Shown: positions 2,503 through 56,363 of the stretch, piece after piece | Position numbering within the stretch: position 1 is the stretch's first letter | Layout: every line of letters begins with the position of its first letter | Assembly: GCA_021780755.1 (NCBI GenBank) | Contig: JAJXYF010000029.1 | Span: forward strand, 62,001 to 126,000 | Direction of reading: 5' to 3' | Length of the DNA: 64,000 nt | Source of the DNA: Deltaproteobacteria bacterium | GTDB lineage: Bacteria; Desulfobacterota; Binatia; Binatales; Binataceae | The notes under the pieces: model-generated | The model's database searches: none | Told to the model about the DNA's origin: nothing | What the model saw: only the letters and a program-made list of their open reading frames with translations | Program-made: the position numbers and the translations under genes

Positions 2503-5268
2503 CTACGCGCGCAGGAGTTCGCGCAGCACGTAGGGCAGCACGCCGCCGTGGCGGATGTACTCGACGTCCTCGGGCGTATCGATGCGCGCGAGCACCTCGA
2601 ACTCCTTGACCTGGCCGCCGTGCTCCGCGCGCACTGTGAGTATCTGGCGGGGCTTGAGTCCGGCTTCGAGCCCAACGATTGAATAGATCTCGCGGCCGGT
2701 CAGCCCGAGGCTCTCACGGCTTTGCCCTTTGACGAATTCCAGCGCGAGCACGCCCATCCCGACCAGGTTGCTCCGATGAATCCGCTCGAAGCTCTCGGCG
2801 ATCACCGCGCGCACGCCGAGCAGTTGGGTGCCCTTGGCGGCCCAGTCGCGCGAGGAGCCTGAGCCGTATTCCTTGCCCGCGATCACGATCAGCGGCACAC
2901 CGTCTTTGCGGTATTGCTCGGAGGCCTCGAAGATCGAGCTGGTGGCGCCGTCCGGCAGATGAGCGGTGACGCCGCCCTCGACGCCGGGCACGAGGAGGTT
3001 CTTGAGCCGGATGTTGGCGAAGGTCCCACGCACCATCACTTCGTGGTTTCCGCGCCGCGCGCCATAGGAATTGAAGTCCTTGGGCGACACGCCGTTGGCG
3101 ACCAGGTAGCGGCCCGCGGGACCATCGGCGGCGATCGAGCCGGCCGGCGAGATATGATCGGTGGTTACGCTGTCGCCGAGCATCGCGAGCACCCGCGCGC
3201 CGTTGATATCGGTGACCGGCGCGGGCGTCGGGCCGACGCCGTCGAAGAACGGCGGCGCCTTGACGTAGGACGACTGCTCCTCCCAGCGAAAGAGCTCGCC
3301 GTCGGGGATCTTGAGTCCGCGCCAACGATCGTCGCCCTCGAAGACGCTGGCGTACTCGGCCTTGAACATCGTTGCATCGACCGCCCCGGCCATCGCGGCG
3401 GTAATCTCCTGCGCACTCGGCCAGATGTCGCGCAGGAAGACGGCCTTGCCCTCGGCGTCGCGCGCGAGCGGTTCGACGTTGGGGTCGAAGTCCATCGTGC
3501 CGGCGATCGCGTAGGCCACCACCAGCGGCGGGGAAGCGAGGTAGTTGAAGCGCACGACCGGGTTGATGCGGCCCTCGAAATTGCGGTTGCCGCTCAGGAT
3601 GGCGCTGGCGACAAGGTTGCCGGTCTTCACCGCACCCGCGATCGGCTCGGCGACCGGGCCGCTGTTACCGATACAGGTGGTGCATCCGTAGCCCACGAGG
3701 TTGAAGTGGAGCTGATCGAGATAAGTCGTCAGGCCGGCGCGCTTGAGATACGCCGTCACCACTTTCGAGCCGGGGGCGAGGCTGGTCTTGACCCACGGCT
3801 TGACGGAGAGGCCGCGCTCGACCGCCTTTTTGGCGAGCAGGCCGGCGGCGATCAGGACGGAGGGATTGGAGGTGTTGGTGCAACTCGTGATCGCGGCGAT
3901 CACCAGCGAGCCGTGCCCGAGCGTAAACTTCGCGCCGTCCATCTCGACCGCGACCGTATGGCCGAGGGGGCCGAGGTCGGCCGCTGGGATCCGCTCATGC
4001 GGCGCCACCTTCGGATTGCCGCCTTCCGCGGTCCAGCTCTCGACTAATTTCCCGGCAACGCTATGGTGACTGCCGACTTCCTTGGCGAGCTCGCGCCGGA
4101 ACTCGCGCTTGGAGTCGGCGAGCGTGACGCGATCCTGCGGGCGCCGCGGACCGGCGAGGCTCGGCACGACGTCCTTCAGATCGAGTTCGAGCGTATCGGT
4201 GAAGATCGGGTCGGGCGCGCCGGGCAGGCGAAACAGCCCCTGCGCCTTGCAGTAGGCTTCGACCAGCTTGACCTGTTGCTCGGTGCGTCCGGTGAGGCGC
4301 AGATAGGCGAGGGTCTGATCGTCAACCGGGAAGAAACCAATCGTCGCGCCGTACTCGGGTGACATATTTCCGATGGTCGCGCGATCGGCCACGCTCAGGC
4401 TCGCGATGCCGTCGCCGAAAAATTCCACGAACTTGTTGACCACGCCCTTCTTGCGCAGCATCTGGGTGACGGTGAGGACGAGGTCGGTGGCGGTCGCGCC
4501 GGGATGGAGGCTGCCCTTGAAGCGAAAGCCGATCACCTGCGGAATCAACATCGGGCTGGAGCGCCCGAGCATCGCGACCTCCGCCTCGATACCGCCGACG
4601 CCCCATCCGACCACGCCCAGGCCGTTGATCATGGTGGTATGCGAATCGGTGCCGAAGACGCTGTCGGGATAGGCTTCGCCGTCGCGCGAAGTGAAAACCA
4701 CCGGCGCGAGGTATTCGAGATTGACCTGATGCACGATGCCGGTGTCGGGCGGCACGACGCGGAAATTATCGAAGGCGCGCTGGCCCCAGCGCAGGAACTG
4801 GTAGCGCTCCTGGTTGCGCTCGAACTCAAGGCCGGCGTTGTGCGCGAACGACGACGCCTGTCCGTAGGAATCGACCTGGACGGAATGGTCGATGACGAGG
4901 TCGGCGGGCTGGAGCGGATTGATGCGGGCGGGGTCGCCGCCGAGCTTGCGAATCGCATCACGCATCACGGCCAGATCGGCGACCACCGGCACGCCGGTGA
5001 AATCCTGGAGGAGTACGCGGGCCGGCATGAAGGAAAATTCCTGCTCGCCGTCCTTGGCGCCGTTCCAGCGCGCGAGCGCCTCGACGTGTGCGGCAGTGAC
5101 GTTCTCCCCGTCCTCGCGGCGGAGCACGTTTTCGAGCAGCACCTTGATCGAAAAGGGCAAACGGTCGAGGGTGAAGCCGCGTTTGGCGAGGGCCTCGAGT
5201 GCGTAAATCGTGTAGGTGGTGCCGGCGGCGTCGAGCGCGGTGCGCGCTCCAAAACTGTTCTTGGTCAT
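2503..5268 (-). CDS. acnA: Aconitate hydratase AcnA
   Basis: A 921-residue aconitase of the AcnA/IRP type, close to the family's usual ~900. It isomerises citrate and isocitrate in the TCA cycle and needs a 4Fe-4S cluster. The cluster cysteines are visible in [15 protein letters not shown] and [11 protein letters not shown]; the N-terminus has the family's [12 protein letters not shown], and the C-terminal swivel domain carries [15 protein letters not shown] with the active-site Ser/Arg. The ATG at 5268 is the natural start. It stands alone, followed by element copy 3. AcnA-type enzymes are often stress-stable, and some also bind RNA when they lose the cluster; nothing here shows that directly. 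Confidence 0.97.
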
Positions 5269-5490
5269 GTCTTTAAATCGCTTTCCCGGAAGAAATATCC
5301 TTGCGTTTCAGATCTCGAATCATGCGCTAGCGCGACGACGGGTCGCGGCCAGCCGCACCCGCACAGCGTTGACGGGCGCCTTTCCCATTCAGTTGTTTCC
5401 AACATACCGCGCGCCGGAGCGGCGGCAAACCGCGCGCCGGCGCAATTGTGCGGAAGCCGTGCGGCCGGCCGCCGCGCGGAGCACTTATGG

Positions 5491-6039
5491 CTAGGGCAAT
5501 TCGCGCAGCAGCTTGCCGTCGCTCTCGTAAAAATCGATCGCCGAATTGCCCTGGTTGTCCACTCCAAGCAGCAGCCGCGGCCTGGCGGTATCGTCATATA
5601 ATCGCAGCGCCGGAACGCCGTCGTCGCTGACGCTCAGAAAGACCCGCTGGGTGCCTTTTTGATCGGCGATATCGAGGCCCGCCGTACCGTCCTTGGCGAA
5701 GCCGATGCCGAGGCGGTTCTTGCCCGCGAGATCATACATCTGGAACACCGGCATCCCGTCGTCGTTGAGATGAAGCGAGGCGTGTGGCTTACCGCGGGCA
5801 TCGACCAGCAGAATTTGCTGGGCGGCGATGGACTTGGCGGGAGCGTCGGCGGCGCCGGCGGGAACCGCGGCGGCGAGCCGATTTGCGAGGGCGCCTCCGA
5901 GAAGCCCACCGATCAGTGCGAGGACAAGGTTGAGCCACGGCTTGCGCGCGAAGGTAATCGCGACGTGGCCCCCGGTCGTGGCCGCGGAGTTGAGCGTGTT
6001 GATGCCGTTGCGGTTGGAATTGGTGACTTCGCCCATCAT
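5491..6039 (-). CDS. Membrane-anchored hypothetical protein with DGxP/LYD beta repeats
   Basis: Starting at the paired ATGs at 6039/6036, the protein is about 180 residues: a short polar N-terminus, one hydrophobic helix (LVLALIGGLLGGALANRLAA), then about 100 residues of short beta repeats of the type DxxGKxRxxLxxxxDGxPxLxLYD. Such repeats occur in uncharacterised extracytoplasmic bacterial proteins. A longer start at 6153 would overlap the upstream gene by 29 bp and put polar residues before the helix; the shorter one has GGAGGA upstream, though with long spacing. Function unknown; likely inner-membrane anchored with an outward-facing beta domain. Confidence 0.65.
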   Translation of the reverse strand: MMGEVTNSNRNGINTLNSAATTGGHVAITFARKPWLNLVLALIGGLLGGALANRLAAAVPAGAADAPAKSIAAQQILLVDARGKPHASLHLNDDGMPVFQMYDLAGKNRLGIGFAKDGTAGLDIADQKGTQRVFLSVSDDGVPALRLYDDTARPRLLLGVDNQGNSAIDFYESDGKLLRELP

Positions 6040-6124
6040 CTTGGTACCCGCTTTTCCTCCGGTGCCCGCGGTATCGCCGCGCGGGTTATTTCGCACGATC
6101 AACGCCAATTGAATAATCTTTGGT

Positions 6125-6619
6125 TCAGGGGGCGGACGGAGGGCGCATCGCATAGACGCGCGTCAGTTTGACCTCGATTTCGACGACCTGGCGTGGCTTG
6201 CCGCTGCGTCCCGGCCGGGCCGGCCGGAGGCTGCCCTCGATTTCGCGCGCGCGACCGTAAACGATCGCGGCGGCGCCGTCGGCGCGCCAGGTGCTGAAGG
6301 CGACGCGCGGATTGCGCGCGAGATCGACGCGCCTGACGGTGTTGTCGTAGATCACGAGGCGCAGCGTGGTGCCGCTCAGGGCGGCATGGACGGGCGCGAT
6401 ATGGGGACGGCCGCCCTTGCCCACCGTCGCCATCGCAACCAGTCGAACGCTCTGCCAGAACTCGACGAATTGAGACGCCGACATCTGGCGCTCGGGATAG
6501 GCGACAGAATCGGCGATGGCGGGGGTGGCGGAAGTGACGCTGCGATCGAGCAGGGCCTGCAGCGCCGCAAATTCATCTTCAACTTTTACTTCAGATTTCA
6601 CTTTTGGTTGGTTTTGCAC
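6125..6619 (-). CDS. Pyridoxamine 5'-phosphate oxidase-fold protein
   Basis: A 164-residue protein with the split-barrel flavin-binding fold: VRLVAMATVGKGGRPHIAPVHAALSG is followed by LARNPRVAFSTW and a C-terminal KLTRVYAMRPP. Proteins of this size in the family use FMN or F420 or bind heme; the true PNPOx residues are not recognisable, so substrate and cofactor remain open. It is co-oriented with the membrane-anchored protein downstream and with cydAB upstream. Confidence 0.8.
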   Translation of the reverse strand: MQNQPKVKSEVKVEDEFAALQALLDRSVTSATPAIADSVAYPERQMSASQFVEFWQSVRLVAMATVGKGGRPHIAPVHAALSGTTLRLVIYDNTVRRVDLARNPRVAFSTWRADGAAAIVYGRAREIEGSLRPARPGRSGKPRQVVEIEVKLTRVYAMRPPSAP

Positions 6620-6707
6620 TGCGATATTCGAGTTGGACTTTAGCCTTCAGTTCGATGCGGCTCCAGCGGTTGGACGCGTCGAAGCCGGATTCCAGCAGCG
6701 CAGCCCG

Positions 6708-7757
6708 TCATTGGGAGTGGCGCTCGACCGGGGAATCGGCGCTGAGAGGGCGATGCTTCGGACGGCTCTTGAAGACCTTCAACAGGTAGCGATAGGACGG
6801 CAGCAGGATTAGCGCGCCGGCGGCGAGCGCGCCGGCCAGGATTTTCAGAGTAATCGGCGGCGCGGCAGCGTTATAGATATCGAGGTCAGGCTCGATCAGG
6901 AAAGGAAACTGGGCGAAGGCCCAACCCCAAAGAACCAGCGCGACGTGGCCGGCCGCGCAGACGCGCGCGACCGCGAAGCGTCGCGCCCAAAGTGCGTACA
7001 GGGCGGCGAGCGCGAGAATGCCGTTGAGCCAGATCAACGGCCAGGTCCATACGCGCTGAGTGAGTCCGGCCCAGATGCCCGGCGCTTCGCGATGGGCAAG
7101 CAGAAGGACGAGGCCGGCGATCGCGCCGACGGCGATTCCGGCGGCGATGGCGCGCAGGCGAAAGTCGTCGCGCAGGGCGGCGTCGTCGGTTTCAAGCGTC
7201 AAGTAAACCGCGGCCAGGTAGGCGAAGAGAGCGAGCGCGAAGAGGCCGACGGCGAAGCAAACCGGCGTCATCCAGGGCAGCAGAAAATCGGTGATGTGAC
7301 GGGGGTCTTTGGGGATCGAGCCGGAGGCGATAGCGCCGATGATCACGCCGAGCAGCACGGGCGTAACCAGGCTCGCGATCGAAAAGAGCCGGCCCCATTC
7401 ACGTTGCGCGCGATCGCGTCCGCCGCCGTAGCTGCGGAAGCTGAAGGCAGAACCGCGCAGGACGATCCCGACGAGCATCAGGGTGATGGGGACATGCATC
7501 GCGATCATGATCGCGGCGAAGGCGGGCGGGAACGCGTCGAAGAGGATGACGACGACGAGAATCAGCCAGACGTGGTCGGCCTCCCAGACCGGTCCGAGGG
7601 CGCGCTCGATGAGATCGCGCTGGGCGGCGGCGCGGGGACCGGCGGCGAGCAGATCCCATACGCCGCCGCCATAATCGGCGCCGCCGGTCAGCACATAAAT
7701 AGTCAGTGCGACGAGCAGCGCCCCGCAGACGAAGAACAGCGCAAACGGGATAGTCAT
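6708..7757 (-). CDS. cydB: Cytochrome bd-type ubiquinol oxidase subunit II
   Basis: The protein starts MTIPFALFFVCGALLV at 7757; its ATG shares one base with the cydA stop (TAATG), showing translational coupling. It has about 349 residues and eight or nine hydrophobic helices, with the family's TGGADYGGGVWDLLAAGPR near the N-terminus and VWEADHVWLILVVVILFDAFP, the conserved segment of the second helix. CydB pairs with CydA in a quinol oxidase that reduces O2 to water in the inner membrane. No CydX/CydY-like small subunit was seen directly downstream. Confidence 0.95.
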   Translation of the reverse strand: MTIPFALFFVCGALLVALTIYVLTGGADYGGGVWDLLAAGPRAAAQRDLIERALGPVWEADHVWLILVVVILFDAFPPAFAAIMIAMHVPITLMLVGIVLRGSAFSFRSYGGGRDRAQREWGRLFSIASLVTPVLLGVIIGAIASGSIPKDPRHITDFLLPWMTPVCFAVGLFALALFAYLAAVYLTLETDDAALRDDFRLRAIAAGIAVGAIAGLVLLLAHREAPGIWAGLTQRVWTWPLIWLNGILALAALYALWARRFAVARVCAAGHVALVLWGWAFAQFPFLIEPDLDIYNAAAPPITLKILAGALAAGALILLPSYRYLLKVFKSRPKHRPLSADSPVERHSQ

Positions 7758-9091
7758 TATAGTGCGGCCGCCTGCACGGGGACCTCCGCGCGCGTCGGAC
7801 TGAGTATCACCTGGCGCCAGAGCAGGTACACAACCGTGACGCCGAGAAAGAGGTAGAGGGCGGAAAAGAGGACGAAGGTCACGGTCAACCCCGGCATCGG
7901 GGTGAGCGCGTCGGCGGTCCGCATCACGCCGTAGATGATCCACGGTTGGCGTCCGACCTCGGTGACCACCCAGCCGGCCTCGACCGCGATGAGACCGAGC
8001 GGCGCGGCGGCGACCATCGTGCGCAACAACCAGATCGAGTCGAAGATGGTGCGCCGGCGCACGATGAGCAGTGCGCCCCACATTGCGAGACCGGCCATCG
8101 CGAAACCGGCGCCGACCATAATCTGAAAGGCGAGATGGACGGCGATCATGGGAGCGGGCCAGTTCCTTTCGGGGAACGAATCGAGCCCGCGGATCACGGC
8201 GTCGGGGTTATGGCCGGTCATGATGCTGAGCATCGAGGGCAACTCGATCGCGTAGTCAAGCTTGCGATCCTTGACATCTGGAATACCGCCGATCGCGAGC
8301 GGGGCGTGGGGACCGCCCTTGAAGAGACCCTCGAAGGCGGCCATCTTGAGCGGTTGCAGACGCGCGACCGCGCGGGCGGAGGCGTCGCCGCTGAGGGGCT
8401 GAAGCACGGCGGCGATCGCACCGATCGCAAAAGCGATCGCGATCGCGCGCTGATGAAAGAGGTTGCCGCGATCGCGCAACCACATCGCGGCGTGAATCCC
8501 GGCCACGACGAAGCCGGTTGCCGCGTAAGCCGCAATAGTCATATGGACGGTTTCGTGGAGGGCCGCCGGATTAGTCAATGAGGCAATCGGGTCGATATCG
8601 ACGGGTAGTCCATTAACCAGTCGAAAGCCGACGGGGGTATTCATCCAGGAGTTCGCGATGACGACAAAGACACCAGAGATCATGCCGGAGAAGGCAACTA
8701 TGAAACCGGCGACGAGGTGCGCGCGCGGCGCCACGCGATCCCATCCATAGAGGTAGATACCGAGGAAAATTGCTTCGGTGAAAAAAGCGAAGCCTTCGAG
8801 CGAAAACGGCATGCCGATGATGGCGCCGGACCATTTCATGAAATGGGGCCACAAGAGCCCGAGTTCGAAGGAGAGCACGGTGCCCGAGACGGCGCCGACG
8901 GCGAACATGATGGCGGTGCCGGTCGCCCAGCGGCGCGCGAGGAGCAGATAAACCTGGTCACCGGTGCGGCGATGGAGCCACTCGGCCACGACCATCAATA
9001 ACGGCATCGCGATACCGATGCACGAAAAGATGATGTGGAAGGCGAGCGACATTGCCATCTGGGAGCGCGCCGCGAGGATATTCGGCATCAA
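7757..9091 (-). CDS. cydA: Cytochrome bd-type ubiquinol oxidase subunit I (short Q-loop)
   Basis: A 444-residue CydA homologue. The heme-ligand His lies in the first helix (MSLAFHIIFSCIGIAMPLLM), and the conserved quinol-side motif GWVVTEVGRQPWIIYGVMRT is present. The loop between helices 6 and 7 is short, as in the cyanide-insensitive (CioA) subgroup, unlike the longer E. coli type. The enzyme gives high-affinity, NO/sulfide-tolerant respiration without proton pumping. It forms a two-gene operon with cydB. Confidence 0.95.
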   Translation of the reverse strand: MMPNILAARSQMAMSLAFHIIFSCIGIAMPLLMVVAEWLHRRTGDQVYLLLARRWATGTAIMFAVGAVSGTVLSFELGLLWPHFMKWSGAIIGMPFSLEGFAFFTEAIFLGIYLYGWDRVAPRAHLVAGFIVAFSGMISGVFVVIANSWMNTPVGFRLVNGLPVDIDPIASLTNPAALHETVHMTIAAYAATGFVVAGIHAAMWLRDRGNLFHQRAIAIAFAIGAIAAVLQPLSGDASARAVARLQPLKMAAFEGLFKGGPHAPLAIGGIPDVKDRKLDYAIELPSMLSIMTGHNPDAVIRGLDSFPERNWPAPMIAVHLAFQIMVGAGFAMAGLAMWGALLIVRRRTIFDSIWLLRTMVAAAPLGLIAVEAGWVVTEVGRQPWIIYGVMRTADALTPMPGLTVTFVLFSALYLFLGVTVVYLLWRQVILSPTRAEVPVQAAAL

Positions 9092-52524: not shown

Positions 52525-53235
52525 TCACGCGATGCTGGTGCTGAAGAGCCACCAGCCGGCGGCGGCAAGAATAATGAACATGACGAAGACGGCGACGAGG
52601 CTCCAGGCATGGCCGATGGGGCCGGTGACCTCGCCCTTGCGGATTTGCTCGAGATCGAAGACGTGCTGCGCGCCCGGGGGCGGGCCGCTGATCCTGATCA
52701 CGCTGGCACGGCGAAAGAAGGCCTTGCCGCGGTTCAGGTTCATGAAGCCGCCGAGCCGCAGGGCCACGTCAACGTCGCCGCCTTTTGGGCCGACGCGCAG
52801 ATAGAAGCCGAGCCTGGTCCAATCGTTGGTGCGCCTGAGATCGGCCGACATGATGCTGTCCTCGAGCACGCTGATGCTGGCTCCATTGAAAAAGGGCAGG
52901 ATTTTATCGGTGCGCGCTTCGACGCTGAAGTAATACCATCCGGGACCGAGCGGCAGGGTCTGCACCCAGCGCGCGTCGTTGTCGTGATGAGTATCGATTT
53001 CGACTTCCGCGGGTTGGCCGGCGGTGGGTCGAATCCAGTTGAATTCCGTGGCGGTCGGCGAGAGCACCCACGCGTCAACGCGCCAACCATCGCACGAAGT
53101 ACCCGAGCCGCGCGCGAAGTCGCCGTTGTTGAGGAGGTTGGCGGGAGCCGCGAGCACCTGGCGAGGCACGAGCGTCACGAGCAGCATCGCGGTCGCGACG
53201 GCAATCGTGCAGGCGGCTGCGCGTATGATTATCAT
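52525..53235 (-). CDS. Secreted/anchored carbohydrate-binding-like protein
   Basis: About 236 residues from ATG 53235: signal peptide (CTIAVATAMLLVTLVPRQVLA), then LLNNGDFARGSG...GWRVDAW, a start typical of galactose-binding-like beta-sandwich (CBM) domains, and a C-terminal membrane helix (WSLVAVFVMFIILAAAGWWL). It probably sits outside the inner membrane. It directly follows the fused glycosyltransferase gene on the same strand (74 bp gap), so a joint role in glycan or glycoprotein handling is possible. Confidence 0.65.
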   Translation of the reverse strand: MIIIRAAACTIAVATAMLLVTLVPRQVLAAPANLLNNGDFARGSGTSCDGWRVDAWVLSPTATEFNWIRPTAGQPAEVEIDTHHDNDARWVQTLPLGPGWYYFSVEARTDKILPFFNGASISVLEDSIMSADLRRTNDWTRLGFYLRVGPKGGDVDVALRLGGFMNLNRGKAFFRRASVIRISGPPPGAQHVFDLEQIRKGEVTGPIGHAWSLVAVFVMFIILAAAGWWLFSTSIA

Positions 53236-53309: not shown

Positions 53310-56300
53310 TCAGATCCAATTCCGCAGCCCCGGCCCTTCGAACCACATGCGCGCGTAGTAGCCGGCGCGCGTGATCGGCATCGCGATCCATATCGGCAGG
53401 TAGTAGATGAAAATGGCCAGCGCACATCCGAGAAATGCGACGCAGACATAACGGCCGCTGAGCTTGGGCCGCCGCCGGAGCGGAATCCACGCGATGGTCA
53501 GCAACAGCACGAGGGGCAGGCCGACGACGGGTTGGGCGCTTGCGGAGAGGAAAGCCGGCTTGAGCGAGACCGCGATATGGCCGAGGCCGATGGCAAGCGC
53601 CGGTATCAAGGTGAGCAAGAGGGCGAAGGTTTCCCAGAACTCGCAGTCGCCTTGCCAGAAATCGGAGAGCACCGCGGCCAGCGCGAGATAGCCAATATAG
53701 ACCGACGGCATATAGTGATAGAGAAATAGTATTCGGCCGATTGGAATCCAGATTACATAGTTCGCCAAATAGCCAATTACGATGAAGGCACGGGTCAGGT
53801 TGGGCCGTTCGATGGCGCGAATGGCGGTGATCGTCATCGCGGGAATTACGCCCCACCAAAGGATTGGATTGCCGGCGCCCCAGATGGTCGCAACGTCGCC
53901 CTGGTCGGGAAAATTCTGCCAATAGGCGACCGGCCGCAGCATCATCGGCCAACTCCACCAGGGCGAGGCATAGGGATGGGTGGCGGTGGAGACACTCTTT
54001 TCGTACCAGATCACGTCCTTGTAGTAGTGAAAGAGATCAGAGATACCGCCCCACCATCCGAGGTAGTAGTGCGGCAGAAAGCAGGCGAGGTAGAAGACGG
54101 ACGCAATTCCACCGAGCATCAGGACCGCGCCCGCGATGCGGCGGTCGCGCACGTCCTGGTTAACCGCGATGGGCCCCGCCGGCGGGCGACGCGCCAGGGT
54201 GTACACGACAAATCCGGTGACCAGCAAAAAGGTTACCGCCGGCACGTAAAGTTTTGAGCCCAGGCACAGGCCGAGCGAGACGCCCAGAAAGACCAGGGTG
54301 CGGCGCCGGTCGCGCCAATCGGGATTCTGGATAAAGCGGAACATCAGGAGGTAGGAGATGGCGGCGAAGGTGAGGTACACGATATCGATAACGGCAATAC
54401 GTGAATCGACGAGGAAAAAGCCGTCGGAGAGCACGAAGCCGGCGGCCAGCGCGGCAGCGAGGCGCGCACGGAACATGCGGCGTCCGAGCAGATAGGTGAC
54501 GCCGGAGAGGATCGTGCCCATGGTCGCGACGCCGAGGCGCCACGCCCACGGAACATCGCCAAAGAGTTTGATGCCGAGCGCGATGAGTAACTTGGCGAGC
54601 GGCGGATGCGGATCGAGGAAGGTCTCGCCGCGCAGGTAATGGCGCGCCTGACCGACGAAATGAACTTCGTCGAAGACCAGTTCATTGGGATGGTTGAGGT
54701 TCCAGAAGCGCAGCACCGCGGCGACCGCGAGCACCAGGACCATCAGGATGGTATCGATGCGCATCCACGGAAAGGGCTCGAAGGTGGCGGGTGGCGGCGG
54801 CCCCAGCCATCCGCCGCGCGCGGCGATCGGCGGGCCCGCGGCTGCGCGCTTCGCGGCAGCCGCCGCTTTTCCGGACGCCTTGGTCCCCTTCCCCGCAGCC
54901 GTCTTCATTTCAGTCAGATTGGCTCCTGCCAGCTTGTCCTCCGCCAGATCCGCGCTGGCTTGCGCCCAGGCGTAGGCGATGACGGTCGCGAACGCGATCA
55001 GGTTAAGCAGTGACGCGGCCATCGCCAGCCGATCGCGCGAATCGAGGAAAATCGCCAACTGCAACGCGTGCAGCACGTACGCGAGGTTGAACAGGCAGGT
55101 CATCGTCAGCAGAACGAAGACCGCCATCATCGCGGGCGCGGTCAGCGCGAGCGGCACCGCCAGCACTAGCGCGGCATAAAAGTACCGCTCGTGCATGCGG
55201 GGCGCCAGCATGCAGAATCCGAACATCGCGAGAAACGAGACGAGCAGGAGATTGCGGCGATCGGGCGCGCGCCAGAGCAGCCACGCGACGAACGCGTAGA
55301 GGAGCACCAGCGCCGTCATCCCGAGCGCGAAATACGAGATGCCGAAGATGGTTTGCGCATCGGGTATGCGCAAGCCGCCGATCAGCGCCATCAGGTTGAA
55401 CGCGTTGACGGAGGTCTCGTGGTAGTAGGCGGCGCCGCTGAGATAGAGATTCGGCAGCCAGCTCCACGGATGGCCGATTTGAAACGGCGCGGCGCCGACG
55501 ACGACGACGGCCACAAACGCCATCGCGGAGCGCCACCATTTGCGCGGCTCAAGATGCAGCAGCGTCCACAGGCCGAGCACCGGCATCAACGAGAGCGCCT
55601 GCGGCTTGATCAGGACGGCAAGGGCAGCGAGCGCCCAGCCGACTTCGAATTCGTCCTCAAGGATCATCGCGAGGCTGAGAAAGAGCGCGAGCGCAAGCGG
55701 GGAATCGGTCTGCCCCCACACCACGGAATCGAACAGTAAGGCCGGATTGAGCGCGATCAGGGCGAGCGCGATCCAGGCTGAACGCGCACCCCGCAGACGG
55801 CGGACGAACAGGTACATCGCGAGCGCGAGCGCAAAGTCGCCGAGCAGCGGCGGGAACTGGACGATGACTTTGAGGGCGAGGCCACCGTCGATGCCGAGCC
55901 CGTTGGCCAACGCTCCGGCGGCCCACAGCGCGTAGAGATAGGCCGGCGGATAATCGAGGAAGTAGCCTTCCTGGTAGGTCCGCGCGGGACCGACGAAGGC
56001 GACCTTCATCGCCCACGCTTCGTAGGTGCCGAGGTCCACGCCGAAGCCGGTAAACAGCGACAGCGCAAACGCCTTGATCACGAGCAGCGAGGTGAGCAGA
56101 AAGAGGACGCGCTTGAGATCGCGGTCGCGTTCGCGGACCAGTGGGCGGGCGAGGAGCCAGAATGCGCAGCACGGCAACGCCGCCAGGATTGCTCCGGCGA
56201 CCACGCCCGCGAGTTTACCGGTGACCGGAGACCCGGGCGGGCCGGCGCCATAGGCGTACGCAAAGGCGAGCCGCGGCATCGCAAGCGCGGCGATCGCGAT

Positions 56301-56363
56301 TGCGAGCGGAAGCTTGATCGGGCCGAGCGCGATCGGCGACGGCGCGTTAGTCGAACGCGTCAT
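53310..56363 (-). CDS. Fused two-module GT-C glycosyltransferase (N-terminal GT-C plus PMT-like)
   Basis: About 1017 residues from ATG 56363. The first ~480 residues are a polytopic GT-C module (FGVDLGTYEAWAMKVAF, YFLDYPPAYLYALWAAGAL). A charged Ala/Lys-rich linker (~490-545) leads to a second polytopic module with the protein O-mannosyltransferase signature PNELVFDEVHFVGQARHYL then GETFLDPHPPLAKLLIALG and the PMT C-terminal segment WWGGISDLFHYYKDVIWYEK. PMTs use polyprenyl-phosphate sugar donors at the outer side of the membrane. Most bacterial PMTs are ~500 residues, so this is a fusion; no frameshift or stop separates the halves. Confidence 0.9.
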   Translation of the reverse strand: MTRSTNAPSPIALGPIKLPLAIAIAALAMPRLAFAYAYGAGPPGSPVTGKLAGVVAGAILAALPCCAFWLLARPLVRERDRDLKRVLFLLTSLLVIKAFALSLFTGFGVDLGTYEAWAMKVAFVGPARTYQEGYFLDYPPAYLYALWAAGALANGLGIDGGLALKVIVQFPPLLGDFALALAMYLFVRRLRGARSAWIALALIALNPALLFDSVVWGQTDSPLALALFLSLAMILEDEFEVGWALAALAVLIKPQALSLMPVLGLWTLLHLEPRKWWRSAMAFVAVVVVGAAPFQIGHPWSWLPNLYLSGAAYYHETSVNAFNLMALIGGLRIPDAQTIFGISYFALGMTALVLLYAFVAWLLWRAPDRRNLLLVSFLAMFGFCMLAPRMHERYFYAALVLAVPLALTAPAMMAVFVLLTMTCLFNLAYVLHALQLAIFLDSRDRLAMAASLLNLIAFATVIAYAWAQASADLAEDKLAGANLTEMKTAAGKGTKASGKAAAAAKRAAAGPPIAARGGWLGPPPPATFEPFPWMRIDTILMVLVLAVAAVLRFWNLNHPNELVFDEVHFVGQARHYLRGETFLDPHPPLAKLLIALGIKLFGDVPWAWRLGVATMGTILSGVTYLLGRRMFRARLAAALAAGFVLSDGFFLVDSRIAVIDIVYLTFAAISYLLMFRFIQNPDWRDRRRTLVFLGVSLGLCLGSKLYVPAVTFLLVTGFVVYTLARRPPAGPIAVNQDVRDRRIAGAVLMLGGIASVFYLACFLPHYYLGWWGGISDLFHYYKDVIWYEKSVSTATHPYASPWWSWPMMLRPVAYWQNFPDQGDVATIWGAGNPILWWGVIPAMTITAIRAIERPNLTRAFIVIGYLANYVIWIPIGRILFLYHYMPSVYIGYLALAAVLSDFWQGDCEFWETFALLLTLIPALAIGLGHIAVSLKPAFLSASAQPVVGLPLVLLLTIAWIPLRRRPKLSGRYVCVAFLGCALAIFIYYLPIWIAMPITRAGYYARMWFEGPGLRNWI

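What the first reader, a model, noticed from the sequence alone, without database searches (positions are those of the whole stretch)
53310..56363. Single-chain fusion of two GT-C glycosyltransferase modules
An N-terminal GT-C module and a C-terminal PMT-like module with FDEVHF and DPHPPLAKLL are joined by an Ala/Lys linker. It may add two sugars in sequence or pair donor synthesis with protein O-glycosylation. A secreted CBM-like protein follows directly.
Basis: partly seen in the sequence, partly recalled or inferred. Interest (0 to 1): 0.6.

Follow-up and report, generated by a model that had tools for sequence, protein, structure and literature searches.

The report
Two sugar-adding enzymes fused together
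A little-known group of soil bacteria (Binatota) carries a conserved membrane protein that joins two different sugar-transferring enzymes in one chain, usually with a sugar-gripping domain, and it probably starts and then extends sugar chains on exported proteins or other surface molecules.

Summary
The finding is real, but the gene is on the minus strand (56363 to 53310, 1017 aa). It joins two complete GT-C enzymes from different families. Residues 79-475 fold like ALG6, ALG3, GPI mannosyltransferase I and PimE; residues 532-1017 fold like Pmt4 and Pmt2. It is not one long PMT. In a Bathyarchaeota genome (L102) the two modules are adjacent overlapping genes followed by a GT2 gene, and single-module paralogues exist in Binatia. 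The fusion is conserved: 57 of 145 Binatia-class genomes match, and in 56 of those one open frame spans both modules.

A jelly-roll, carbohydrate-binding-type domain accompanies it: in Binataceae as the signal-peptide and TM-anchored neighbour (52525-53235), in other families fused to the N-terminus (fold Z 19.1).

Best explanation, inferred and not shown: a periplasmic one-chain enzyme whose GT39 half starts O-mannosylation and whose ALG/PimE-like half extends it, with the lectin domain holding the acceptor. Actinobacteria do this with separate Pmt and PimE. The acceptor could instead be a glycolipid or polysaccharide. New variant of a known kind; no description found in the open-access papers searched.

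The parts
53310..56363 (-). Fused GT-C/GT-C glycosyltransferase gene, 1017 aa
   Evidence: one open frame in 56 of 57 matching genomes of 145 examined
54939..56129 (-). N-module, residues 79-475: GT-C fold of the ALG6 / ALG3 / GPI-MT-I / PimE type
   Evidence: Z 27.9 (3.4 A, 385 aligned) ALG6, 27.7 (3.7 A, 351) ALG3, 25.0 (4.1 A, 354) GPI-MT-I, 21.1 (4.3 A, 345) PimE; Pfam GT87 at its cut-off
56034..56036 (-). Asp110, proposed catalytic base of the N-module (D-x3-Y/F; the position of PimE D58/Y62 by motif)
   Evidence: D in 40 of 40, Y or F at 114 in 40 of 40; PimE residues from PMC12041525 passages
54771..54938 (-). Variable inter-module linker, residues 476-531
   Evidence: low pLDDT; length and charge vary
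53313..54770 (-). C-module, residues 532-1017: GT39 / PMT catalytic core plus PMT_4TMC, no MIR domain
   Evidence: Z 31.7 (3.2 A, 414 aligned) Pmt4, 31.6 (3.2 A, 420) Pmt2
54666..54671 (-). Asp565-Glu566, DE motif of the C-module (MtPMT D74-E75)
   Evidence: 40 of 40; alignment to Pmt1 and Pmt4; MtPMT mutagenesis PMC12331936 passages
53733..53735 (-). Arg877, R-x2-F motif of the C-module (MtPMT R441-Y444; Pmt1 R649-F652)
   Evidence: R and F in 40 of 40
52525..53235 (-). Neighbour 'n2', 236 aa: signal-like helix, CBM-like beta domain, C-terminal TM anchor
   Evidence: homologue fused to the N-terminus of the enzyme in 14 of 48 Binatia-like loci
52675..53139 (-). CBM-like jelly-roll domain of n2 (residues 33-187)
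   Evidence: fold of the homologous fused domain of L090: Z 19.1, 2.4 A, 145 aligned, to 4d0q

Best explanation
A single-chain, two-site glycosyltransferase of the cytoplasmic membrane whose two active sites face the periplasm and use polyprenyl-phosphate-linked sugar, most likely mannose. The C-terminal GT39 module puts the first sugar on Ser/Thr of an exported protein. The N-terminal ALG/PimE-like GT-C module adds the next sugar or sugars to it. A jelly-roll carbohydrate-binding domain, in trans (n2, in Binataceae) or in cis (N-terminal fusion, in other families), holds the glycosylated acceptor near the membrane so that the chain is extended before release, as MIR domains do for eukaryotic PMTs. 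Shown: the fusion, its conservation, two distinct GT-C folds, intact catalytic motifs in both, the lectin-type fold, cis/trans exchange of that domain, and GT2 neighbours in L080, L088 and L102. Inferred: the sugar, the protein acceptor, the order of steps, processivity, and that both sites act.
For: Two GT-C folds of different families in one chain. Catalytic residues invariant in 40 of 40 sequences in both halves: D110, K253, H391; D565, E566, D660, R877, F880, H883. The C-module aligns with Pmt1, Pmt2 and Pmt4 through the DE and HPP motifs, and with Pmt1 and Pmt4 through the R-x2-F-x2-HY motif. Mycobacteria use a GT39 enzyme to start and the GT87 enzyme PimE to extend protein-bound mannose (PMC12757957 passages). 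Split overlapping genes followed by a GT2 in Bathyarchaeota (L102). GT2 directly after the fusion in L080 and L088. CBM-like domain fused in 14 loci, fold Z 19.1. The MIR domain of PMTs is a mannose-binding module that affects processivity (PMC7759382 abstract).
Against: No activity, sugar or substrate was tested. The C-module scores 67.7 bits against the 800-bit cut-off of NCBI's Pmt equivalog model. The N-module has no sequence match to any solved chain, PimE included, and only 12 of 40 members match GT87 at E 1e-3. CBMs on GT-C enzymes such as EmbC bind polysaccharide acceptors (PMC3044687 abstract), which favours a glycan acceptor. The relative placement of the two modules is uncertain (pTM 0.64). 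In Binataceae no GT2 was seen beside the gene (context).
Confidence: 0.45

Rival explanations
1. Same chemistry, different acceptor: the two modules act in turn on a glycolipid or cell-surface polysaccharide, and the CBM-like domain binds that growing glycan, as in EmbC and relatives.
For: A lectin-type module accompanies each module even where they are apart: the single N-module paralogues L128, L133 and L134 carry it in cis, the single C-module paralogues L129 and L130 are followed by it. EmbC carries an acceptor-binding CBM (PMC3044687). The N-module fold is closest to lipid-linked-glycan transferases ALG6, ALG3 and GPI-MT-I.
Against: The C-module aligns best with protein O-mannosyltransferases, with all their catalytic motifs. 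No polysaccharide cluster lies around the gene in Binataceae, where the flanks are housekeeping genes.
Confidence: 0.3
2. The N-module is a catalytically idle partner, like PIG-U in the GPI transamidase, that binds lipid or acceptor for the PMT half.
For: PIG-U chains match the N-module about as well as PimE does (Z 20.7 for 8imx_U against 21.1 for 9dm5).
Against: Asp110, Lys253, the MHERY motif and the DYPP motif are invariant or nearly so in 40 of 40, not expected for an idle module.
Confidence: 0.12
3. The two modules are active but do unrelated jobs; fusion only fixes their expression ratio.
For: Single-module paralogues of both kinds exist in the same family; the linker is variable and disordered.
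Against: The order and the pairing are kept across three families and, as split neighbours, in an archaeon.
Confidence: 0.13

Closest known systems
Actinobacterial protein O-mannosylation: Pmt (GT39, e.g. Rv1002c) plus PimE (GT87)
   Same: Same two fold types; GT39 starts and GT87 extends with polyprenyl-phosphate mannose in the periplasm (PMC12757957, PMC12041525, PMC12331936 passages).
   Different: There two separate proteins; here one chain, in Gram-negative-type Binatota, with a lectin domain, and an N-module closer in fold to ALG6 and ALG3 than to PimE.
Eukaryotic PMT1/PMT2/PMT4 with MIR domains
   Same: C-module fold (Z 31-32) and catalytic motifs; a carbohydrate-binding accessory domain (MIR, PMC7759382 abstract).
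   Different: The accessory domain here is a jelly roll at the N-terminus or in trans, not a beta-trefoil inside a loop; there is a second GT-C module; the dimer state is unknown.
Mycobacterial EmbA/B/C and AftD arabinosyltransferases
   Same: GT-C enzymes with carbohydrate-binding modules for the acceptor (PMC3044687 abstract; fold hits).
   Different: One GT-C module each as far as I recall; different sugar and order of domains.
Bathyarchaeota gene trio in L102
   Same: Homologous N-module (35% identity) and C-module (28%) as overlapping neighbours, then a GT2.
   Different: Separate genes; its extra beta-type segment lies in the C-module gene and does not match the Binatota CBM-like profile.

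Membership tests
GT39 / PMT (C-module) | Pfam PMT and PMT_4TMC above curated cut-offs | tested here: met
   100.1 vs 22.7 and 73.8 vs 32.4 bits; 40 of 40 members match both
GT39 / PMT (C-module) | Catalytic residues: DE motif, second Asp, R-x2-[FY] | tested here: met
   D565, E566, D660, R877, F880 in 40 of 40, aligned with Pmt1/Pmt4. That D660 is the MtPMT D176 position is read from the alignment and not confirmed in structure
GT39 / PMT (C-module) | PMT fold | tested here: met
   Z 31.7, 3.2 A, 414 aligned, to 9i5l
NCBI equivalog 'protein O-mannosyltransferase' NF058602 | Score above the equivalog cut-off (800 bits) | tested here: not met
   67.7 bits; so it is not filed as an orthologue of actinobacterial Pmt
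GT39 / PMT (C-module) | Transfers mannose from polyprenyl-P-mannose to Ser/Thr | not testable with these tools
   needs an assay
GT87 / PimE (N-module) | Pfam GT87 above its cut-off | tested here: inconclusive
   25.9 vs 25.0 bits in the window; 12 of 40 members match at E 1e-3; L102 N-module 22.8, below
GT87 / PimE (N-module) | GT-C_A fold with a catalytic Asp after TM1, Tyr at +4, donor-phosphate Lys and His | tested here: met
   fold Z 21.1 to PimE; D110, Y/F114, K253, H391 conserved. One-to-one equivalence with D58/Y62/K195/H322 is by motif order, not by a superposition
GT87 / PimE (N-module) | Sequence similarity to PimE | tested here: not met
   profile A7 finds no solved chain at E 10
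Jelly-roll carbohydrate-binding modules (n2 domain) | Beta-sandwich CBM fold | tested here: met
   Z 19.1, 2.4 A, 145 aligned to 4d0q for the fused homologue L090; CBM4, CBM16 and CBM61 further down. The window's own n2 was not folded
Jelly-roll carbohydrate-binding modules (n2 domain) | Match to a curated CBM family | tested here: not met
   1 of 38 members matches CBM_4_9_1 at E 0.00047, none for the window protein
Jelly-roll carbohydrate-binding modules (n2 domain) | Binds sugar | not testable with these tools
   needs binding measurements
   no GT2 model among matches at E up to 1

The most novel reading that the evidence does not exclude
A processive, single-chain O-glycan synthase: one polypeptide starts a protein-linked mannan-type chain at one GT-C site and extends it at a second GT-C site, with a lectin clamp supplied in cis or in trans. 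A GT39 initiation-plus-elongation machine built from two modules that elsewhere are separate genes.
Probability: 0.35. Interest if true: 0.7.

Novelty: new variant of a known kind. Interest (0 to 1): 0.5.

Why it matters
I found no report of two GT-C catalytic modules in one chain in the library searched. If both sites work, this is a natural fusion that ties initiation of periplasmic O-glycosylation to its extension, and a ready subject for a structure with two donor sites. It also points to protein or surface glycosylation in Binatota; the searches pairing Binatota with glycosylation terms returned nothing on it. The cis/trans lectin domain gives a genetic handle on the role of carbohydrate-binding domains (MIR, Emb CBMs) in processivity.

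Tried and rejected
Single long PMT family: rejected. Internal duplication of one module: rejected by hhalign, probability 0.5%, E 0.11. The N-module as donor synthase: rejected. n2 as mere substrate: weakened, because relatives fuse its homologue to the enzyme. Positive-inside charge of the linker as proof of topology: failed, median net charge 0, positive in 18 of 40; the periplasmic placement of the catalytic loops rests on fold homology. CBM tree (61 rows): cis and trans copies cluster by bacterial family, three label changes, root unsure; I could not decide whether cis or trans came first. Sequence search of solved structures with n2 gave only weak hits, hyaluronate lyase at E 0.11. The first genome-contig scan with the single protein found nothing; the allowed second scan with alignment A1 gave 52 loci. 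A phylum search with the N-module profile found 3 of 198 genomes, so the module is rare outside Binatia in that sample; Bathyarchaeota was seen only once, and I could not sample archaea further. The viral structure library showed CBM-like tail proteins only. VIA-align lists are filled by GT-C rows, so a family missing there is not excluded. L136 is not counted as a single-module paralogue, because it and the G029 fragment on contig C178 look like two ends of one gene broken by a contig end.

Full report
What is there. The + strand of 53310-56363 holds stops; the minus strand holds an open frame whose ATG at 56363 gives a 1017 aa protein. It has one copy in its own genome. Related records are named Candidatus Binataceae, Candidatus Binatus soli and Candidatus Binatia, so the window is from Binatota (by relationship; the window itself is unnamed).

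Two modules. Pfam puts PMT and PMT_4TMC in the C-terminal half and a borderline GT87 in the N-terminal half. NCBIfam's Pmt equivalog is far below cut-off. An AlphaFold model made from 40 sequences (mean pLDDT 85.3, pTM 0.64) shows two helical modules and a disordered linker at about 495-524. VIA-align places residues 532-1017 on Pmt4 and Pmt2 (Z 31.7 and 31.6) and residues 79-475 on ALG6 (27.9), ALG3 (27.7), GPI mannosyltransferase I (25.0), PimE (21.1) and PIG-U (20.7). Profiles of the two halves do not align with each other. So these are two complete GT-C enzymes of different families, in one chain.

Active sites. In 40 of 40 aligned sequences the C-module keeps D565-E566, D660, R877, F880 and H883, and the N-module keeps D110, K253, H391, E392 and R393, with Y (33) or F (7) at 114. 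The Pmt alignments place the DE and HPP motifs of the C-module on Pmt1, Pmt2 and Pmt4, and the HPY and R-x2-F-x2-HY motifs on Pmt1 and Pmt4 (the second-half match to Pmt2 is weak). MtPMT needs D74, D176, R441 and Y444 (PMC12331936, passages). PimE needs D58, Y62 and K195, and H322 contributes (PMC12041525, passages). The N-module has the same kind of residues in the same order; that they occupy the same positions is inferred.

Conservation. In one search, 23 of 24 genomes of the genus and family (own included) match, and 4 of 14 others of the class: 27 of 38. In one search, 57 of 145 class genomes match: 37 of family f1, 14 of f6, 6 of f7. In 56 of the 57 one open frame spans parts of both modules. 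The 57th (G102, 63% complete) has the pieces on two contigs. G009 of family f1 has none. I counted the families and the frames by hand from the printed table. The genome-contig scan gave 52 loci: 48 Binatia-like, of which 47 hold both modules in one frame, and 4 others, L100 to L103. In the wider phylum the N-module profile found 3 of 198 genomes, all of family f1.

Split relatives. In the Bathyarchaeota record L102 the N-module (4893-6158) and the C-module (6112-7821) are overlapping neighbours, followed at 7809 by a GT2 gene (Pfam). In the cyanobacterial loci L100 and L101 and in L103 only the C-module type was found. Within Binatia, stretches fetched (10 stretches) held single N-modules (L128, L131, L132, L133, L134, L135) and single C-modules (L129, L130); L136 is a contig end, and L137 is a weak N-type match.

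The lectin-like domain. n2 (52525-53235, minus) has a signal-like helix, a beta domain and a C-terminal TM. It follows the enzyme gene directly; in L076 the start and stop overlap. Of the 48 Binatia-like loci, 32 lack a cis domain, and 29 of these have n2 next door; the 3 without it (L070, L071, L078) run off the contig. In 14 loci the domain is fused to the enzyme's N-terminus; 10 of those also have a separate copy, and 4 do not (L080, L081, L090, and L082, which is cut). The last two loci, L088 and L096, are cut within the enzyme gene (my count). The model of the triple fusion L090 (68 rows, pLDDT 83.8) shows a jelly roll at 30-187 matching 4d0q, the hyaluronan-binding module of S. pneumoniae hyaluronate lyase (Z 19.1, 2.4 A, 145 aligned, 25% identity), then CBM4, CBM16 and CBM61 entries in Foldseek. 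Among single-module paralogues, the N-module genes L128, L133 and L134 carry the domain in cis, and the C-module genes L129 and L130 are followed by it on the same strand; L131, L132 and L135 carry none. So in several cases each kind of GT-C module has its own lectin partner. That argues for an accessory role in acceptor binding, and against n2 being simply a substrate.

Context. In 14 of 17 Binataceae loci the pair sits beside yebC and ruvC, as in the window, so it is an old vertical resident and not a cluster of mobile glycan genes. In L080 and L088 a GT2 gene starts right after the fusion (Pfam GT2 for L080, NCBIfam for L088). The own genome has several GT2 relatives, the closest NCBIfam matches all below cut-off, so the donor synthase is not identified.

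Mechanism. Established: actinobacterial GT39 Pmt starts and GT87 PimE extends protein-bound mannose with polyprenyl-phosphate mannose (PMC12757957, passages); PMT MIR domains bind mannose and influence processivity (PMC7759382, abstract); EmbC has an acceptor-binding CBM (PMC3044687, abstract). Inference: the fused enzyme does initiation and extension in one chain, with the jelly-roll domain as clamp. The main doubt is the acceptor, protein or glycan.

Novelty. Literature searches for GT39 with GT87, COG names (the COG numbers were recalled), Binatota with glycosyltransferase, GT-C fusion phrases and Binatota or Binatia with mannosyltransferase or glycosylation (only the 10 top rows of 1,492 seen, none with a Binatota term) gave no description. 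The library holds open-access papers only, and database annotations of this architecture could not be checked. I file it as a new variant of a known kind.

Noticed in passing
L099 (CAMBZJ010000029.1): A contig labelled Klebsiella pneumoniae carries a Binatia-type triple fusion that groups with L091 and L098; the label looks wrong. L081 (Polyangiaceae) and L091 (Alphaproteobacteria) may be mislabelled too.
   Followed up: partly
L050:5378-7042 (-): Downstream of the triple fusion and its separate CBM-like gene lies a further membrane protein with PMT_2/PMT matches.
   Followed up: no
L133:2433-5150: An N-module paralogue with CBM-like domains on both sides: CBM, GT-C, CBM.
   Followed up: partly
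L080:8751-10151 and L046:6350-7750: A GT2 domain fused to a methyltransferase domain two genes after the fusion in family f7.
   Followed up: no
L051:7415-10594, L076, L077, L093, L097: In Binatus-type members the C-module carries an insert of roughly 60 to 100 residues in mid-module, with hydrophobic stretches.
   Followed up: no
L102:6112-7821: The archaeal GT39 gene has about 100 extra residues between its first TM and the DE motif that look like a beta domain and do not match the Binatota CBM-like profile.
   Followed up: partly
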